NCBI GenBank assembly: GCA_028277945.1
Contig: JANQFH010000068.1
Location: 186,001 to 250,000, forward strand
DNA: 64,000 nt
Reading direction: 5' to 3'
Origin: Oligoflexia bacterium
GTDB lineage: Bacteria; Bdellovibrionota_G; JANQFH01
A program made the translations under genes and the position numbers. The stretch's first letter is position 1. The number at the start of each line of letters is the position of its first letter. The notes beneath the pieces were generated by a model. The model saw only the letters and a list, made by a program, of their open reading frames with translations. It was not told the DNA's origin and did no database searches. This document shows, in pieces, positions 1-51,165 of the stretch.

Positions 1-1953
1 GATTGTAAGGCTGCCGAAAAGAGCCTTAGAGCGGTTAAATCTGATTACTTGGTGCGGGACATTCTCTTAGCAGAGCTGGCCAGCTGTTTTGAGTCCCTAT
101 CTCAGTGGCGCAAGGCAGACCAATACAACAAACAGGCTTTGGCAACCATGCCACGGCTCAGTCCATCCTATCCGGCTCTACTACTACAACGTGCCTACTT
201 AGTGGCTATGCAACAAAAGTGGAAAGAGCTTCGTAAGATAGTTGGCAGACTGCCACCACCATCACAGTTAGACGATGTCAAGAGCATTGCTCGCTATTTG
301 TCGCTGTTCCGTGTCGACGCAGATAGGGGAAAGCGACTGTTGCAACCATACCGCCGCGATCTTTACCTTAGTTTTTTGGCACGGCAAGATGATGCCGCGG
401 CAAAGCAGGTGATGGGCCGTCAAGATCCAACCGAAGTCTGGCAGGATGATGCCTTGCTAAAAGATCTAGCGCAAGCCTACCGTACAAGAAAGGAATATAG
501 GAAAGCACGGGACTACTATCAGCAGTATTTTGATCGCACTAAGGATTATTCCATTCTCTTTACCTTAGCACGCATCCACAAACTCCTTGCCAACCCTGCT
601 GATAGAGAGAAGACCTTGTTTACCAAGGTGGAGAGTGCGCGAACCGTTGCCGAAAAACAGATTAGCATGATCCAGTTAGGCCGTTTCTTCTGGAACAACA
701 ACCGTATCCAGGAGGCACGACGGATGTTTGATCAGGCGTGGAGATTATCGCAAGAGAGCCCAGAGGCGATCTCAGCGCTCTACTACCATGGGCGTCTACT
801 AGAGATTGAGGGCGACTGGCAGGGGGCAGAGGTGCTGCTCGAGAAGGCCTTTCCCTTACGCACGCAAGCGCTACCTTTCAAAAAGCGCCGCTTACAAGCG
901 CTGCAAAGGCTTGGCTGGATCGCGTACAAACAGGGATTTTATCGTCGGGCCATCGGTTGGTATGACGCAGTCATCAACGAGGACGACGAAGGGTCGTTTC
1001 GTGACGCCAGCTATTTTTGGCTGGCGTTGAGTTATCAAGCTCTGCATGAACAGGGTAACGCCTTTGCTGCATTAGCCAAACTCGTAAAAGAGTATCCGTT
1101 GTCCTATTACGGTCTGCTAGCGAGAAAACGGCTCTCTGAAAAGGCGCTGCTGCCGGAACAGCCACAGTTTTCTTTGCTGACGCCGCAAAAGCCTATGGTT
1201 TCGATGCAGCAATTGCGCGATTCCTTGCAACCGGCTGAGTGGATTTTTCTACGTCGCTATGCTGAACTCGCGGCTGCCGAGTTGGAATCTCTCGCAGCTG
1301 CTGAACTAAAACCCATTAGTTGGCGGCGAAAGCCAGCGAGTGCGTTGCTATTTCTCGCCACTTGTTTGCATGAGGTGGGTGATGTCTTTACTGCGCTACG
1401 TTTGGCAAAGTTTGCCATAAGCTACGACGAAAGCAACCCACCCAAAAAATGGTTGGCCTTTTTGTACCCTCGTCCTTACTGGCAGCAGGTGCAGTACTAT
1501 GCGGCGCAAAGCCAGTTTGATGCCTATTTGAGCCTGGCTCTGATGCGTCAGGAGTCCGAGTTTGACCAACGTTCGCTCTCTCATGCCGATGCTTATGGCC
1601 TGATGCAGATCATCCCGCCTTTGGCATTCAAAATCGCTGCAGATTTCGGCCTACCAGCGTTTGCAGCGAGTGAGCTGTTCAATCCGGGTTTTAACGTACG
1701 GCTTGGATCGTATCATCTAGGAAAGCTACTGCACCGCTACCAAGGCAATGCCGTCTATGCGTTGGCAGCCTACAACGGCTCCGAGTCAGCTCTGGCACGC
1801 TGGCGCAAAGCGTATGGCCGACTACCGTTGGCGCGTTTTATCGAGGAGATCACCTATGGCGAAACCAAGAACTACGTCAAGCGGGTTGTGCGCAACTACG
1901 CTGTTTATCAGCTACTCTATTTGGGAGAGATGGATTTACAAAGCCTTCCCTAA
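1..1953 (+). CDS. Soluble lytic murein transglycosylase (Slt-type), 5' end outside the window
   Basis: The frame is open from base 1, so the gene begins upstream and about 650 codons are visible. The first ~480 residues are a helical, TPR-like solenoid (for example AYRTRKEYRKARDYYQ), as in the doughnut part of Slt70. The last ~150 residues form the SLT catalytic domain: RQESEF holds the catalytic glutamate, followed by AYGLMQI and LAAYNGS, the usual family motifs in the right order. The enzyme would cut the MurNAc-GlcNAc bond of peptidoglycan in the periplasm, leaving 1,6-anhydroMurNAc ends. The signal peptide would lie outside the window. It is convergent with the following lipoprotein gene; their stop codons are 17 bases apart. 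Confidence 0.9.
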   Translation, partial: DCKAAEKSLRAVKSDYLVRDILLAELASCFESLSQWRKADQYNKQALATMPRLSPSYPALLLQRAYLVAMQQKWKELRKIVGRLPPPSQLDDVKSIARYLSLFRVDADRGKRLLQPYRRDLYLSFLARQDDAAAKQVMGRQDPTEVWQDDALLKDLAQAYRTRKEYRKARDYYQQYFDRTKDYSILFTLARIHKLLANPADREKTLFTKVESARTVAEKQISMIQLGRFFWNNNRIQEARRMFDQAWRLSQESPEAISALYYHGRLLEIEGDWQGAEVLLEKAFPLRTQALPFKKRRLQALQRLGWIAYKQGFYRRAIGWYDAVINEDDEGSFRDASYFWLALSYQALHEQGNAFAALAKLVKEYPLSYYGLLARKRLSEKALLPEQPQFSLLTPQKPMVSMQQLRDSLQPAEWIFLRRYAELAAAELESLAAAELKPISWRRKPASALLFLATCLHEVGDVFTALRLAKFAISYDESNPPKKWLAFLYPRPYWQQVQYYAAQSQFDAYLSLALMRQESEFDQRSLSHADAYGLMQIIPPLAFKIAADFGLPAFAASELFNPGFNVRLGSYHLGKLLHRYQGNAVYALAAYNGSESALARWRKAYGRLPLARFIEEITYGETKNYVKRVVRNYAVYQLLYLGEMDLQSLP

Positions 1954-1977
1954 AAGGTACGGCCTTACTTTCAGGGA
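1954..1977. repeat. Half copy of the palindromic element found after ftsZ
   Basis: These 24 bases are identical to one arm of the 66-bp palindrome at 14025-14090 (shared core GGTACGGCCTTACTTTCAGG). The preceding decamer is also similar (8 of 10). Here the second arm is absent. The repeat begins directly after the transglycosylase stop codon and supplies the stop and last codons of the convergent gene. Confidence 0.75.
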
Positions 1978-4905: not shown

Positions 4906-6957
4906 ATGGCTCGTTCAGTAGTAAAAAAAGTGAACCCTGCCACCGTTGCCGAGTATGAGCAGTTGGTGCGCGAGGTGTCGCACCACGATTGGCTCTACTA
5001 TGTTAAGGATTCGCCGAAGATTAGCGATGCCTACTACGATCGCCTTTACCGCAAGTTGCGCGAACTAGAGGAACGCTTTCCCCAGCTCACCCTGCCACAC
5101 TCACCAACCCAACGAGTGGGTGGCGAAGTGATTGCCGCCTTCTCCAAAGTCAAACATCCGCAGAAGATGCTGAGTCTGGACAACACCTATGACGAAGAAG
5201 AGCTCAAACAGTTTTTGCGTCGTAATCAAGAAGGCTTAGGTAAGATGCCAACAGCTTGGGTGGCAGAACCAAAGATTGACGGTTTAAGTATTGAGCTGAC
5301 CTACGACAACAACCATGGGGCTGCATTGGTCACCGCAGCAACCCGTGGTGATGGCATCTACGGTGAGGACGTCACCCACAACATCCGCACCATCCGTACC
5401 GTGCCACTACTCTTTAAGGATATGCCCTTTTCTCCCTGTACGGTGCGTGGAGAGATCTTTATTGAACGATCCGCTTTAGAGATGATCAACCAGCAGCGTG
5501 TCGACGAGGGCGAGGCACCATTTAAGAACTGCCGCAACGCTGCAGCAGGCTCGGTACGCCTATTAGACAACACGATCACCGCCAAACGGCCTTTGAAGTT
5601 CTTTGCCTGGGGGCTGCTGGAGGCAGAACGTGCCGTTGAAGACCACTGGCAGGCAATGGAGCTGCTTAAGAGCAGTGGCTTTCCGATCAATCCAGTCAAT
5701 CGTTTGCTGCACACAGCAGCAGAGCTTTTCAACTGGGTGCATGAGTTTGACAAAACCGTCCATACGCTCGCCTATCCCACCGATGGTGTGGTGATCAAGG
5801 TCAACCGTTTTGATCAGCAGCGCAAGCTCGGCTCGACGAGCAAGTACCCACGGTCGGCTATTGCCTTTAAGTACTCGGCTGAGAAGGCCATCACCCAGAT
5901 TAAGCAGATTCAAGTGCAGGTGGGTCGAACCGGAACGTTGACACCGGTGGCAGAGTTGGTGCCTGTTGAGCTTTCTGGAACAGAGGTAGCGCGGGCTTCT
6001 CTGCATAACGAAGATGAAATCGCTCGCAAGGATGTTCGTCAGGGTGATTGGGTCGAGATCGAAAAGGCTGGCGAGATCATTCCGCAGGTGGTGCGAGTTT
6101 TGAAGCAACGTCGTCGGTCTGCGTTAAAGCGTTTTGTCATGCCCAAGCGTTGTCCAGCCTGTGGCTCTGAGGTGGTGCGTGATGCCGAGGCAGTAGCGCG
6201 CCGTTGTTCAAACCGCACCTCTTGTCCGGCACAGTTGCGCGAAGCGATTTTGTTTTTTGCCTCACGCAGTGCCATGAACATTGAGCATCTTGGTCCAGCG
6301 CTTGTGGATCAGCTGTTGCAGCGAGGTTTGATCAAAGACGCTGCCGATCTCTTTCAATTGCGCCAGCAGGATTTAGCAGCGCTCGAGCGCATGGCAGAGA
6401 AGTCTGCAGAAAATGTCGTAGCAGCCATCGAGGTGAGTCGGTCGCGTGCGACCCTGCCCCAGCTGATCACCGGCCTTGGTATTCCACACGTCGGTGCGGT
6501 GGCAGCAGGCATGCTGGCGGATTACTTTGGTTCGCTTGCAGCCATGCTTAACAAAAATCCACAAGCGTTGCAGGCCGAGCTTGAAGCAATCCATGGCATT
6601 GGTCCGGTCATAGCGGCTGCGGTTGCTGCCTTTTTACAACAGAGCAGCAGTAAACGGCTGCTGAAGAAGCTCTTAAAACTCGGTATCGATCCCAAACAGC
6701 CAAAGGCTCATGCGCGTGACGCCAACCTACCACTGGCTGGCCTCTCTTTTTGTATTACCGGCACACTGAGCAAACCACGGCAGGAGTACAAAGAGATTAT
6801 CCAGACAATGGGGGGGCAGTTTCACAGCACGGTAAAAAAGGATACCAGCTATCTTGTTAAGGGCGAAGGAGCCGCGAGTCGCAAAGATCAACTTGCTGCC
6901 AAGTATGGCACTCGGGTAATCACTGAAAGCGATTTCAACACACTCACCGCTCGATAA
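4906..6957 (+). CDS. ligA: NAD-dependent DNA ligase LigA
   Basis: 683 residues, the normal length. It seals nicks in duplex DNA using NAD+, in replication and repair. The adenylation lysine is K123 in AEPKIDGLS. The adenylation domain is followed by an OB fold, a four-cysteine zinc finger (CPACGS ... CSNRTSC), helix-hairpin-helix repeats (LITGLGIPHVGAVAA, IHGIGPVIAAAVAA) and a C-terminal BRCT domain (LPLAGLSFCITGTLS). The ATG at 4906 starts the family-typical N-terminus; no strong Shine-Dalgarno is seen. A TTGACA at 4869-4874 could be a -35 element but the matching -10 is weak. The gene is transcribed alone. Confidence 0.97.
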   Translation: MARSVVKKVNPATVAEYEQLVREVSHHDWLYYVKDSPKISDAYYDRLYRKLRELEERFPQLTLPHSPTQRVGGEVIAAFSKVKHPQKMLSLDNTYDEEELKQFLRRNQEGLGKMPTAWVAEPKIDGLSIELTYDNNHGAALVTAATRGDGIYGEDVTHNIRTIRTVPLLFKDMPFSPCTVRGEIFIERSALEMINQQRVDEGEAPFKNCRNAAAGSVRLLDNTITAKRPLKFFAWGLLEAERAVEDHWQAMELLKSSGFPINPVNRLLHTAAELFNWVHEFDKTVHTLAYPTDGVVIKVNRFDQQRKLGSTSKYPRSAIAFKYSAEKAITQIKQIQVQVGRTGTLTPVAELVPVELSGTEVARASLHNEDEIARKDVRQGDWVEIEKAGEIIPQVVRVLKQRRRSALKRFVMPKRCPACGSEVVRDAEAVARRCSNRTSCPAQLREAILFFASRSAMNIEHLGPALVDQLLQRGLIKDAADLFQLRQQDLAALERMAEKSAENVVAAIEVSRSRATLPQLITGLGIPHVGAVAAGMLADYFGSLAAMLNKNPQALQAELEAIHGIGPVIAAAVAAFLQQSSSKRLLKKLLKLGIDPKQPKAHARDANLPLAGLSFCITGTLSKPRQEYKEIIQTMGGQFHSTVKKDTSYLVKGEGAASRKDQLAAKYGTRVITESDFNTLTAR

Positions 6958-7000
6958 GAATCAGTGTAGGTCCCACCATAATTTTTTAAACACCTTCCAC

Positions 7001-7209
7001 GTCTAATGCCGTCTCTGTAGGCGTATCCAACCAAACCTTCGGCGGATGGCTCGTCGGACTATTATTTTGGGGGCCCGTCCTCGCTTCGCTGCGGCGATGC
7101 CCCCAAGCCCCGCGCTCACGGTCGAGTGAATCGACCGTTCGCTTATCGTCCTCCTGCGCTTTATTCCGCCTCAGGCTGGTTGGATACGCCTTTAGAGCTG
7201 GTTTTAGAC
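7001..7209. mobile_element. MITE-like element 1 with terminal inverted repeats
   Basis: About 209 bp of non-coding DNA. The ends begin GTCTAA and finish TTAGAC. An inner, nearly perfect inverted repeat (AGGCGTATCCAACCA on the left, its complement on the right) is the strongest part. Inside are further hairpins, for example CGGTCGA/TCGACCG at 7119-7137 and GGGGGC/GCCCCC flanking 7070-7105. There is no open reading frame. The right arm carries, on the minus strand, a 25-base core (7154-7178) shared at 21 of 25 positions with the neighbouring element. No transposase is present. Confidence 0.6.
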
Positions 7210-7246
7210 GCGATGACTTTTAATTTTTGTTGCACACACTCTGAAA

Positions 7247-7413
7247 TAGTGATGGTGCGACAGCCTGAGAGAAAATAAAGCGCAGACGAGCAGCGAGCGC
7301 CTGACGAGCCTTTAGGCGAGGAAGGAAAGCTCGCTCAATGCAATCGCTAGCTAGCGTAGCGATTCTCTTCTATCGAGGCGAGCCATTTCTCGAAGGTTGT
7401 CGTACCATCACTA
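7247..7413. mobile_element. MITE-like element 2 with terminal inverted repeats
   Basis: About 167 bp. Terminal repeats of 20 bases (TAGTGATGGTGCGACAGCCT at 7247-7266 and its complement at 7394-7413) match at 18 of 20 positions. The interior contains AATCGCTA/TAGCGATT and other short inverted repeats and no coding frame. It shares a core (CAGCCTGAG, four variable bases, AATAAAGCGCAG) with element 1, in the opposite orientation. The rest of 6958-7482 holds no gene that I can support. Confidence 0.6.
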
Positions 7414-7482
7414 ATTTAGGCGTGTGGAACGAAAATAAGACGATTGCCTCTAACTTTGGCAAAATGCTTGTAGGGTAGAATA

Positions 7483-8373
7483 CTAGTAGAGATTCAATAG
7501 CGACAGCGGGTTGAACATATTGCCCTTCCAGTAAGCCGACCAGTGCAGGTGTGGACCATTGACACGACCACTGCTGCCACTGTAGCCAATCACCTCACCA
7601 GCGATAACTTCTTGTTTATGCTCAACCAAGATCTTATCGAGGTGAGAGTAACCGGTTATGAGGCCATTGCCATGATCGACAAAGACACAGTTGCCGGGAA
7701 TGAAAAACTCACCTGTCAGTAACACCTGGCCATGGTTGGTAGCGCGCACGGGTGTACCAACGGCGGCACGAAAGTCCGTACCCCAATGCGGGGATCGTGG
7801 TTTGTTGTTTTGCCGGCGTCGGATACCAAATGGGCTGGTGATCTTCCCAGCCACCGGACGTTGAAAGTCAGTTTTCCACAGCCGCTGTTTTGCTGATTGC
7901 GTGAACGCCGTCCGGATCTGTTGCTTTTCTTGCTTGGCGCGGCGGCGTTGTTGAGCCGAGAGTTCTGCGAACTTCCGTGGTACTGTCAAATGTTCAATTC
8001 CCCAGCGTTTTTGTTTAATCTCAATTTGTCGGACAAAATGCCAAGCATCGCCATGGCGATTAAGCAAGGCAATCTTGACTGAGTAAAGACCCGGCACGCT
8101 GTCCGTGGGAGCCGCAACGACAGCTTCATGGTAATTGCTTAGGTGATTTGTACGACGCTTCTTTGGTTGGGGTAGTGGCTGCAGGCGTAGCACTTTGCCC
8201 GCAAAGAGTGCGTAGGCGAGCTCATAGTTCTCTGGTAACTGTAGCGACAGTAGCACTGCATCCCCTTGCAGCATGGCTTGTGGCAACTTGGGGTCGATCG
8301 ATGGAGAGGCGCTTGCTGCAACAGCGTGCCATGCACCAATCAACAGGCACCTTACGATTAACCTAGAGATCAC
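7483..8373 (-). CDS. LytM/M23-family zinc endopeptidase, exported
   Basis: The C-terminal third is a peptidase M23 domain with the full set of zinc and catalytic residues: HWGTDFRA (H...D), GLITGYSHLD and GPHLHW (HxH). Such enzymes cut peptide cross-links of peptidoglycan or, when degenerate, activate amidases; here the site is intact. I chose GTG at 8373, which gives a clean signal peptide (MISRLIVRCLLIGAWHAVA). An ATG at 8424 in the same frame would give 313 residues but would overlap pfkA by 38 bases. The middle is basic and probably helical (residues ~130-180). It follows pfkA closely on the same strand. Confidence 0.88.
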   Translation of the reverse strand: MISRLIVRCLLIGAWHAVAASASPSIDPKLPQAMLQGDAVLLSLQLPENYELAYALFAGKVLRLQPLPQPKKRRTNHLSNYHEAVVAAPTDSVPGLYSVKIALLNRHGDAWHFVRQIEIKQKRWGIEHLTVPRKFAELSAQQRRRAKQEKQQIRTAFTQSAKQRLWKTDFQRPVAGKITSPFGIRRRQNNKPRSPHWGTDFRAAVGTPVRATNHGQVLLTGEFFIPGNCVFVDHGNGLITGYSHLDKILVEHKQEVIAGEVIGYSGSSGRVNGPHLHWSAYWKGNMFNPLSLLNLY

Positions 8374-8386
8374 TTGCAAGCTCGAC

Positions 8387-9421
8387 CTAGCAGAAGAACT
8401 GCTTGGCGATGGCGTAGAATTCATCAGGAACGGTTTTGATGCCCTCGCGCACCCGTTGCAGGCTCTCTGCTTCTATATTATTGCCGCGCAAAACCGCCAT
8501 CTTGCCAAAGTCCTGTTTGAGTACGAGCTCCATGGCAAAGAGACCGTAGCGGGTTGAGAGAATGCGATCACTTGCTGTCGGGCTACCACCACGTTGAATG
8601 TGACCGAGGCTGGTCGCACGCGTGTCCAAGGCGGTCTTCTCTTTAATGGCATTGGCGAGTTGTTCGCCAATGCCACCAAGTCGTTTGTGGCCAAAGGCAT
8701 CGGTCTCCTCGCTGGCGACATTGCCCAGACCTTTGATTTCTGCTCCCTCAGCCACGACAACGATATTATAGCCCTTACCCCGCTGCCGCTGCTGCTTCAG
8801 GATAGCGGTAATCTCATCCACCGTCATCGAGTGTTCCGGCGTGATGACGACATCTGCACCACCGGCAATGCCAGCAAAGGTGGCGATCCAACCGGCATGC
8901 CGTCCCATCAGCTCCAACACCATGGTGCGATTGTGAGATTTGGCAGTGGTGCGCAAACGATCGATGGCGTCTGTGGCAATGCTTACAGCAGTGTCAAAGC
9001 CAAAGGTAAAATCGGTGCCGAGCAAATCGTTATCAATGGTTTTAGGCACGCCGATCATGGGCAGCCCTTCACTAGCTAGGTGCGCTGCAAAGCCGAGCGT
9101 ATCTTCGCCGCCGATGGCGATGAGCGCATCTAGTGCGAGCGCTTTAAAGTTGTTTATGCAAGTGGCAACGCCGTTGTCGATTTTCCGCGGGTTGGTACGG
9201 GAAGTGCCAAGGATAGTACCTCCAAGCGCAAAGATCTCTTCTGCCTCCGCATAGTTCAGTGGCCGGGTCTCTCTCTCAAGCAGGCCCTTCCACCCACCTT
9301 GGATGCCGAGGACCTCAAAGCCATTGGCCTCGGCCTTGGCCACAACAGCGCGGATGACCGCGTTTAATCCAGGGCAGTCACCACCCCCTGTGAGGATGCC
9401 AATTTTCATAGGAGGGCTCAT
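8387..9421 (-). CDS. pfkA: 6-phosphofructokinase, residues suggest pyrophosphate-dependent type
   Basis: 344 residues. The start GGGDCPGLNAVIR, the PKTIDND catalytic loop and ELMGRHAGWIA identify the phosphofructokinase family, which phosphorylates fructose 6-phosphate in glycolysis. The catalytic base is D130. Two positions known to separate phosphoryl donors are Asp107 (in GGEDT) and Lys127 (in PKTIDND). ATP enzymes of the E. coli type have Gly at both, while pyrophosphate enzymes have Asp and Lys. The donor is therefore probably pyrophosphate and the reaction reversible; this is inference from family knowledge. Either MSPP or the MKIG four codons later could be the start. Confidence 0.93.
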   Translation of the reverse strand: MSPPMKIGILTGGGDCPGLNAVIRAVVAKAEANGFEVLGIQGGWKGLLERETRPLNYAEAEEIFALGGTILGTSRTNPRKIDNGVATCINNFKALALDALIAIGGEDTLGFAAHLASEGLPMIGVPKTIDNDLLGTDFTFGFDTAVSIATDAIDRLRTTAKSHNRTMVLELMGRHAGWIATFAGIAGGADVVITPEHSMTVDEITAILKQQRQRGKGYNIVVVAEGAEIKGLGNVASEETDAFGHKRLGGIGEQLANAIKEKTALDTRATSLGHIQRGGSPTASDRILSTRYGLFAMELVLKQDFGKMAVLRGNNIEAESLQRVREGIKTVPDEFYAIAKQFFC

Positions 9422-13955: not shown

Positions 13956-14024
13956 CTGCGCTCACAGAGCTAACACAGCAGAAACACGGGGTCAATTGGA
14001 CAAGAGGAGTTGGCGTGCGCGGCT

Positions 14025-14090
14025 CCCAAGAAGGTACGGCCTTACTTTCAGGGAATGCATTCCCTGAAAGTGAGGCCGTACCTTCTTGGG
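14025..14090. repeat. 66-bp near-perfect palindrome between ftsZ and argS
   Basis: Two 33-base arms meet at ATGCAT without a loop and differ at one position. It begins two bases after the ftsZ stop codon, reading on the minus strand. In RNA it would make a long hairpin that could terminate or stabilise the ftsZ message; there is no T-run after it. One arm recurs at 1954-1977, so it is a dispersed repeat and not only a local terminator. Confidence 0.8.
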
Positions 14091-14092
14091 AC

Positions 14093-15280: not shown

Positions 15281-15314
15281 CGACCCTCTCCTTCGGTCTT
15301 GGTTATTCACCATG

Positions 15315-15434
15315 GCAACGTGCAGATTTCCGCATCTCTGCGTTGGTCGGCTGCGAGCGGTGCTCACTTACTCTTAAAGTAAGCTCCGCTCCGTTCTCGC
15401 CTCCCGCCTTGATCTGCAAAAATCTGCACGTTGC
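15315..15434. mobile_element. 120-bp inverted-repeat element, copy 1 (between ftsA and ftsZ)
   Basis: It begins GCAACGTGCAGATTT and ends with the complement AAATCTGCACGTTGC. Between them are GCGTTGGTCGGCTGCGAGCG and a small inverted repeat (ACTTACTCTTAAAGTAAG). A second copy at 50746-50864 is almost identical. There is no coding capacity. It fills most of the 186-base gap between the ftsA stop and the ftsZ start, so it will be transcribed as part of the division message. Confidence 0.8.
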
Positions 15435-15466
15435 TGCTAACATGATACGTCTCATGAGTATTAGTT

Positions 15467-50727: not shown

Positions 50728-50745
50728 GTTGAACTATTCACAACA

Positions 50746-50864
50746 GCAACGTGCAGATTTTCGCATATCTGCGTTGGTCGGCTGCGAGCGGTGCTCACTT
50801 ACCTGTTAGTAAGCTCCGCTCCGTTCTCGCCTCCCGCCTTGATCTGCAAAAATCTGCACGTTGC
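50746..50864. mobile_element. 120-bp inverted-repeat element, copy 2 (after nrdJ)
   Basis: It is nearly identical to 15315-15434, with the same ends (GCAACGTGCAGATTT and its complement) and the same interior (GCGTTGGTCGGCTGCGAGCG, CTCCGCTCCGTTCTCGCCTC). Only the small central inverted repeat differs (CTTACCTGTTAGTAAG). It lies 18 bases after the nrdJ stop. The rest of 50728-51165 holds a weak inverted repeat (AATCACT/AGTGATT) and no gene. Confidence 0.8.
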
Positions 50865-51165
50865 TGCCAAGCACAGTGAGTTTCGGGAATAGTGCTGGTT
50901 AGTAAGGACTCTCAATCTTATTAATCGCGGTATTTGACCCACGGCCGCACTCCTTGGCTGCAACCAGGGTTGACACAAAAGTAACCAAGGTTTACAGGGA
51001 TAGCTCCCGCCAGATTGACAGAGCAGGCCTAACTATTCTTAATCACTGGTGATCGTGAAGCTTATAGTGATTTTCAAGCTGGCATAGATATTGATAATAG
51101 TAGTATCTGTTATTAGGAGTAAAACGATTTCGAGGAAGATCATCTCACCCGAGGAGGAGTCCATC

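What the first reader, a model, noticed from the sequence alone, without database searches (positions are those of the whole stretch)
7001..7413. Two adjacent inverted-repeat elements sharing a core
Two non-coding elements, 209 and 167 bp, with different terminal repeats lie 37 bases apart. They share a 25-base core in opposite orientation (21 of 25 positions identical). This suggests a family of structured, non-autonomous elements that exchange ends, or an RNA with a conserved core. They fill the ligA 3' region with no gene between.
Basis: partly seen in the sequence, partly recalled or inferred. Interest (0 to 1): 0.6.

Follow-up and report, generated by a model that had tools for sequence, protein, structure and literature searches.

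The report
Genome-wide repeat of paired capped hairpins
The two odd palindromes after ligA are one copy of a repeat, scattered over at least 27 gene-free spots of this uncultured bacterium's genome, made of two hairpins whose shared cap is kept in shape on one specific strand; it looks like a new lineage-specific variant of the small hairpin-forming mobile elements of bacteria.

Summary
The two palindromes (7000-7210 and 7241-7419) form one composite double-hairpin unit (about 6963-7486) between convergent ligA and M23 peptidase genes. The same genome holds at least 27 intergenic loci with about 37 copies of the shared cap. There are two arm types (A, B), usually head to head at a fixed 89-bp core spacing, plus solos, flipped hairpins and three A/B chimeras. 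No copies were found in 95 other genomes searched (4 of the same phylum), nor by pattern in 84,980 species genomes, nor in plasmids or phages.

The cap is under structural selection on one strand. Its stem shows many compensatory changes. In the inner arms and cap stem, non-Watson-Crick cells are G.U 24 times and A.C once. Tandem G.A pairs recur (29/31 lower, 26/26 apical) under a GNA triloop.

Best reading: a lineage-specific, non-autonomous hairpin repeat (REPIN- and MITE-like) whose hairpin is used as a folded single strand, with copies later remodelled by recombination at the cores. Whether that strand is ssDNA or RNA is unresolved. No mobilising enzyme, empty site or target-site duplication was found.

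The parts
6963..7486 (.). Whole composite unit: A outer flank, hairpin A, linker, hairpin B, B outer flank (edges approximate)
   Evidence: Flank alignments of A and B copies across the genome and BLAST of the unit
6963..6991 (-). Outer end of A, degenerate form of the promoter-like TTTACA-N17-TAGACT end (here TTTAAA...TACACT); points into the 3' end of ligA
   Evidence: Alignment of A outer flanks; promoter reading is inference
7000..7210 (-). Hairpin A (sense CTGAG strand is the minus strand)
   Evidence: Inverted repeat I1, fold z -10.4
7154..7175 (-). A core, 5' half CCTGAGGCGGAATAAAGCGCAG
7036..7053 (-). A core, 3' half CGAGCCATCCGCCGAAGG
7059..7148 (-). Structured insert in the apical loop of A, related to the dispersed type D family (edges approximate)
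7211..7240 (.). Linker between the A and B hairpins as defined by the 34-nt arms
   Evidence: Alignable in 9 head-to-head pairs with 89-90 bp between core starts
7241..7419 (+). Hairpin B (sense strand is the plus strand)
   Evidence: Inverted repeat I2, fold z -7.6
7264..7285 (+). B core, 5' half CCTGAGAGAAAATAAAGCGCAG
7379..7396 (+). B core, 3' half CGAGCCATTTCTCGAAGG
7286..7378 (+). Insert in the apical loop of B, shared with the chimera at C47:40555 (L002)
7450..7486 (+). Outer end of B, degenerate promoter-like end
   Evidence: Alignment of B outer flanks; promoter reading is inference
4906..6957 (+). ligA, NAD-dependent DNA ligase, upstream neighbour
7483..8424 (-). M23 peptidase gene, convergent neighbour

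Best explanation
It is one copy of a lineage-specific, non-autonomous interspersed element: a double hairpin (A and B, head to head, joined by a fixed linker) dispersed in intergenic space. Shown: copy number, the two arm types, fixed spacing, conserved cap, compensatory changes, strand-specific tolerance of G.U, recurrent tandem G.A pairs, flips and chimeras. Inferred: each hairpin is recognised as a folded single strand of the CTGAG...CGAAGG sense, in the manner of REP/REPIN hairpins, by a protein supplied in trans that was not identified here; this recognition kept the cap and inner arms paired while units spread. Afterwards copies changed by ordinary recombination: a hairpin flips between its own arms, cores that thereby became direct repeats recombine and delete the linker (A/B chimeras), apical caps are swapped between A and B, and the apical loop tolerates other structured inserts such as type D. 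Some unit ends keep an outward promoter-like sequence and may have been co-opted by downstream genes.
For: At least 27 loci carry A and/or B and the covariance model finds about 37 cores, all in this genome. The loci inspected are intergenic, about half between convergent genes and few between divergent genes (read by eye). Nine head-to-head pairs have 89-90 bp between core starts. Covariation score 0.373 against 0.162 in shuffles (0/500) and 0.04-0.11 with slid partners; helix 1 pairs in 97% of cells with 6 of 10 pairs doubly changed. G.U:A.C is 24:1 by cells and 17:1 by distinct column events in the inner 16 bp plus cap stem (binomial p 7e-5 by events), with no such bias in the outer arms. 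Tandem G.A in 29/31 lower and 26/26 apical sites and a GNA triloop in 26/26; these exist on one strand only. In one locus the sense strand folds better than antisense by 4-5 kcal/mol as RNA and 2-3 as DNA. Flips: A in L005, L030, L018, B in L018; fusions L042, L016, L002. Inverted hairpin doublets at a fixed distance with compensatory changes are described for REPINs (PMC3116915).
Against: No target-site duplication, no empty site and no second genome with the family, so transposition itself is not shown. The genome's two Y1 (RAYT-type) transposase genes are each flanked by different short repeats, not by A or B. The hairpins are far larger than REPs. The strand bias fits RNA as well as ssDNA.
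Confidence: 0.57

Rival explanations
1. A structured RNA: the hairpins work in transcripts (5' or 3' untranslated regions or small RNAs), for example as protein-binding, stability or processing elements, and were spread by recombination or an unknown route. Selection acts on the RNA of the CTGAG sense.
For: Strand-specific G.U tolerance and tandem G.A pairs, covariation, better RNA fold on the sense strand. In informative co-directional loci the sense agrees with gene direction in 4 (L004, L005, L015, L016) and disagrees in 1 (L001) (read by eye).
Against: In the usual head-to-head unit one of the two hairpins is antisense to any one transcript. No Rfam match; no csrA, so the GGA triloops are not CsrA sites; no reverse transcriptase for RNA-based spread. 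No expression data.
Confidence: 0.3
2. A classical DDE-type MITE whose ends are the GTGGGACACTAGACTA-like outer flanks; the inner hairpins are passengers.
For: Similar outer ends on both sides of the unit; intergenic dispersal.
Against: No target-site duplication in five units with both ends; only three well-kept ends in the genome, each before a gene start; the conserved part is the hairpin, not the ends; no transposase with these ends was seen. DDE families were not searched genome-wide.
Confidence: 0.08
3. Neutral palindromic repeats kept symmetric by intra-palindrome gene conversion or template switching, without selection on a folded strand.
For: Flips and fusions show that the arms do recombine.
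Against: Conversion gives no strand preference, yet G.U exceeds A.C 24 to 1 in the inner hairpin and not in the outer arms, and the tandem G.A sites are maintained as mismatches.
Confidence: 0.05

Closest known systems
REPINs / REP-BIME elements with RAYT transposases
   Same: Intergenic, inverted pairs of hairpins at a fixed distance, compensatory changes in the stems, hairpin acting as a single strand, mosaic arrays (PMC3116915, PMC2817692, PMC3733652)
   Different: REPs are 20-40 bp with a GTAG or CGTC tag, and GTAG REPs flank RAYT genes; A and B hairpins are about 90-210 bp, show no consistent tag, and both RAYT-type genes found here are flanked by other short repeats
Correia repeat enclosed elements and other bacterial MITEs
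   Same: Non-autonomous inverted-repeat elements in intergenic space with a conserved core that can generate promoters at their ends (abstract of PMC2649163)
   Different: No target-site duplication found, no transposase with matching ends seen, and an internal strand-specific capped hairpin is the most conserved part
TIR repeats associated with tyrosine transposases (TIRtrons)
   Same: Longer inverted repeats forming moderately abundant families (PMC3733652)
   Different: Neither of the two Y1 transposase genes in this genome is flanked by A or B arms
Double-hairpin elements of organelle genomes
   Same: Two linked hairpins dispersed in non-coding DNA (recalled; papers listed were not read)
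   Different: Organellar; no sequence or mechanistic link was tested

Membership tests
REP / REPIN (RAYT-mobilised) | Palindrome of 20-40 bp | tested here: not met
   Hairpins of roughly 90-210 bp
REP / REPIN (RAYT-mobilised) | GTAG or CGTC tag at one end of the palindrome | tested here: not met
   No consistent tag in the arm and flank alignments of A and B, judged by eye
REP / REPIN (RAYT-mobilised) | The same repeat flanks a Y1/RAYT gene of the genome | tested here: not met
   Two Y1_Tnp genes, flanked by TATCAAAAGGAAGCGGGTAC and by CCCTTAAAGGTACGGCCTTACTTTTAGGG, not by A or B
REP / REPIN (RAYT-mobilised) | Inverted doublet at a fixed distance with compensatory stem changes | tested here: met
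   89-90 bp core spacing in nine pairs; covariation
MITE (DDE-mobilised) | Defined terminal inverted repeats | tested here: inconclusive
   Similar outer ends on A and B sides, but degenerate or missing in many copies
MITE (DDE-mobilised) | Target-site duplication | tested here: not met
   Common strings of 3-4 bases in five units, no longer than between mismatched units (mean 4.65)
MITE (DDE-mobilised) | An autonomous partner with the same ends | tested here: inconclusive
   No A/B locus with a transposase gene was seen; DDE families were not searched genome-wide
Known structured RNA family (Rfam) | Match to a described covariance model | tested here: not met
   None at gathering threshold in the window; only chance-level matches at E up to 10
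Retroelement RNA (group II intron, retron) | Reverse transcriptase encoded in the genome | tested here: not met
   No RVT_1 match in the 95.6% complete genome; controls ring

The most novel reading that the evidence does not exclude
A previously undescribed class of modular structured RNA (or ssDNA) element: exchangeable arms around a conserved cap built of stacked tandem G.A pairs and a GNA triloop, whose apical loop serves as a docking place for a second dispersed structured element (type D) that appears to use tandem G.A pairs as well, so that one uncultured lineage has evolved a set of mutually nesting, strand-specific hairpin elements.
Probability: 0.25. Interest if true: 0.68.

Novelty: new variant of a known kind. 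Interest (0 to 1): 0.5.

Why it matters
Most bacterial hairpin repeats are too short to show which strand is under selection. Here the copies are long and diverged enough to show strand-specific structural selection, by the ratio of G.U to A.C and by tandem G.A pairs, from one genome alone. That test could be applied to other repeats. The genome also holds a typical RAYT/REP system and other hairpin families that nest in one another, which makes this uncultured lineage a good place to ask how such elements arise, exchange parts and become regulatory sequence.

Tried and rejected
Viral pattern hits (L091-L094) and the G055 hit: chance, since they lack the second core half. RNA-model hits in G060 and G063: E 0.4 and 0.8, treated as chance. 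Plasmid and phage BLAST: nothing. Rfam: nothing (in one search only tRNAs next to type D). RAYT as the mobiliser: the two Y1 genes have their own flanking repeats. Reverse transcriptase: none. CsrA sponge suggested by the GGA triloops: no csrA found. Target-site duplications: none. Integron attC site: considered by eye only; no RYYYAAC/GTTRRRY ends seen; dropped. Naming the organism through ligA: best relatives 47% identical, from several phyla, uninformative. A caution on my own scripts: loci with a minus-strand place were held reverse-complemented, so record coordinates printed for those are unreliable; spacings and sequences are not affected, and genome coordinates cited here come. The first attempt to submit was malformed and handed nothing in.

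Full report
OBSERVATION. Their arms are 7000-7033/7177-7210 and 7241-7274/7386-7419, and the shared 25-mer is 7154-7178 against 7261-7285 in opposite orientation, 21 of 25 identical. Both fold far better than dinucleotide shuffles (z -10.4 and -7.6). A second shared block was missed: CGAGCCAT-N4-CGAAGG at 7036-7053(-) and 7379-7396(+). So each hairpin has the core CCTGAG-N4-AATAAAGCGCAG ... CGAGCCAT-N4-CGAAGG, and the two N4 blocks pair with each other. The elements fill the gap between ligA (4906-6957, +) and a convergent M23 peptidase gene (7483-8424, -).

A FAMILY IN THE GENOME. The core half CTGAG-N4-AATAAAGCGCAG (up to one mismatch) has 33 matches in the own genome and none for the control pattern. 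BLAST with a hand-made consensus of the A-B unit gives 67 matches, which collapse to 27 loci (collapsed by eye). A covariance model of the 61-base core finds about 37 cores, all in this genome; two weak hits elsewhere (E 0.4 and 0.8) are treated as chance. No copy was found in the other 95 genomes searched, of which only four are of the same phylum, nor with an exact pattern in the collection of 84,980 species genomes, nor in plasmids or phages. The four viral pattern hits lack the second core half. In what can be searched, the family is thus confined to this lineage. The organism could not be named: ligA relatives are at most 47% identical and come from many phyla.

ANATOMY. There are two arm types. 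A reads GGCGTGTCCAACCAG and B reads TAGCGATGGTACGACAA, each followed by the core and the complementary arm. In nine loci A and B lie head to head with 89 or 90 bp between the core starts, joined by an alignable linker. Solos of A and of B occur. Outside the hairpins, the outer flanks of A and of B end in similar sequences, roughly TTTACA (A) or TTGCCA (B), 17 bases, TAGACT. The form GTGGGACACTAGACTA is well kept (0-1 mismatch) at three places in the genome, each before a gene start. This looks like an outward promoter; that is inference, and many ends, including both in the window, are degenerate. The loci inspected are intergenic; about half lie between convergent genes and few between divergent genes (genes called from open reading frames only).

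STRAND-SPECIFIC STRUCTURE. On 26 short-loop copies (23 distinct) the core structure ..((((..((((((.....((...(((((((...)))))))..))..))))))..)))).. has a covariation score of 0.373 against 0.162 in shuffles (0 of 500 as high) and 0.04-0.11 when partners are slid. The N4 stem pairs in every copy with AU, GC, CG, UA and a few GU pairs. In the inner 16 bp of the arms plus the cap stem, the CTGAG strand shows G.U 24 times and A.C once (17 to 1 counting each column and type once; binomial p 7e-5), whereas the outer arms show no such bias (27 to 41). A.C on this strand would be G.U on the other, so the bias says which strand folds. The unpaired sites agree: tandem G.A pairs sit below the cap stem in 29 of 31 copies and in the apical stem in 26 of 26, at one of two heights, under a triloop that is GGA in 25 and GCA in 1. 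On the opposite strand these would be T.C mismatches. In one locus the sense strand is also the more stable fold, by 4-5 kcal/mol as RNA and 2-3 as DNA. The copies are related, so cells are not independent; the event count and the slid control are the fairer numbers.

REARRANGEMENTS. A is flipped between its own arms in L005, L030 and L018, and B in L018. L042 and L016 join one A outer arm and one B outer arm around a single core, with the linker and the inner arms gone, and L002 joins a B arm to an A arm on the linker side. L030 and L042 share the same flip junction, CCTTCG-GCGAAATCAAG. The simplest route is a flip, then recombination between two cores that have become direct repeats. Both apical cap types occur in A and in B, so caps have been swapped too. 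The A loop in the window, and those at C28:118811, C72:19865, C72:38533 and C59:338432, hold a second dispersed structured family, D, which also occurs on its own, in several cases next to tRNA genes.

MECHANISM. I take the element to be a non-autonomous interspersed repeat whose hairpins are recognised as folded single strands, in the way of REPINs, with later remodelling by recombination. The dispersal, the fixed doublet and the strand-specific fold are shown. The mobilising protein, transposition itself and the ssDNA nature are inferred. The main rival is a structured RNA spread by an unknown route; the strand bias fits it equally well. In the head-to-head unit one hairpin is always antisense to any given transcript, which is easier to understand for DNA. 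In informative co-directional loci the sense agrees with the genes in four and disagrees in one, too few to decide. No target-site duplication was found. The genome has two Y1 transposase genes of the RAYT type, but each is flanked by its own short repeat. It has no detectable reverse transcriptase and no CsrA.

COMPARISON. REPINs share the inverted doublet, fixed distance and compensatory stem changes (PMC3116915), but REPs are 20-40 bp, carry a GTAG or CGTC tag, and GTAG REPs have RAYT partners (PMC3733652). Three of four tested features are not met, so this is not filed as a REPIN. Correia elements are inverted-repeat elements with a conserved core that can make promoters at either end (PMC2649163 abstract); target-site duplication was tested and not met here, and no autonomous partner was seen. 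The element works like these miniature elements but is not shown to be a member of either.

VERDICT. A real lineage-specific repeat family with no match in the libraries searched, a new variant of a known kind, with unusually clear evidence for selection on one folded strand.

Noticed in passing
window 1947-1977 and 14024-14091; L142; genome-wide: A typical RAYT/REP system: a Y1 transposase gene (C9:48799-49125) flanked by inverted copies of CCCTTAAAGGTACGGCCTTACTTTTAGGG, with 55 matches of that repeat in the genome, many as inverted pairs about 30 bp apart.
   Followed up: partly
L141 (C61:13089-13403): A second Y1 transposase gene flanked by a different inverted repeat, TATCAAAAGGAAGCGGGTAC.
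   Followed up: no
L253, L258, L259, L261, L262, L263, L265; window 7059-7148: A second dispersed structured family (D): AAGCGA-stem-GATTYAYTC-stem-GAGCGC-...-TATAAT-...-GCGAGTAGC-..., with stems that appear to change together; 16 matches, several beside tRNA genes and five in the loops of A/B hairpins. No Rfam match.
   Followed up: partly
window 15304-15440 and 50735-50870: A further hairpin repeat, two copies 93-98% identical, arms AGCAACGTGCAGATTT.
   Followed up: no
L002, L012, L029 next to the A/B element: Another long foldback repeat with arms GAGGCAACTGGGTTGTTTTGC adjoining A/B elements.
   Followed up: no
window 7483-7485: The TAG stop codon of the M23 peptidase gene lies inside the outer end of the B flank, so the element may have set the end of that gene.
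   Followed up: no
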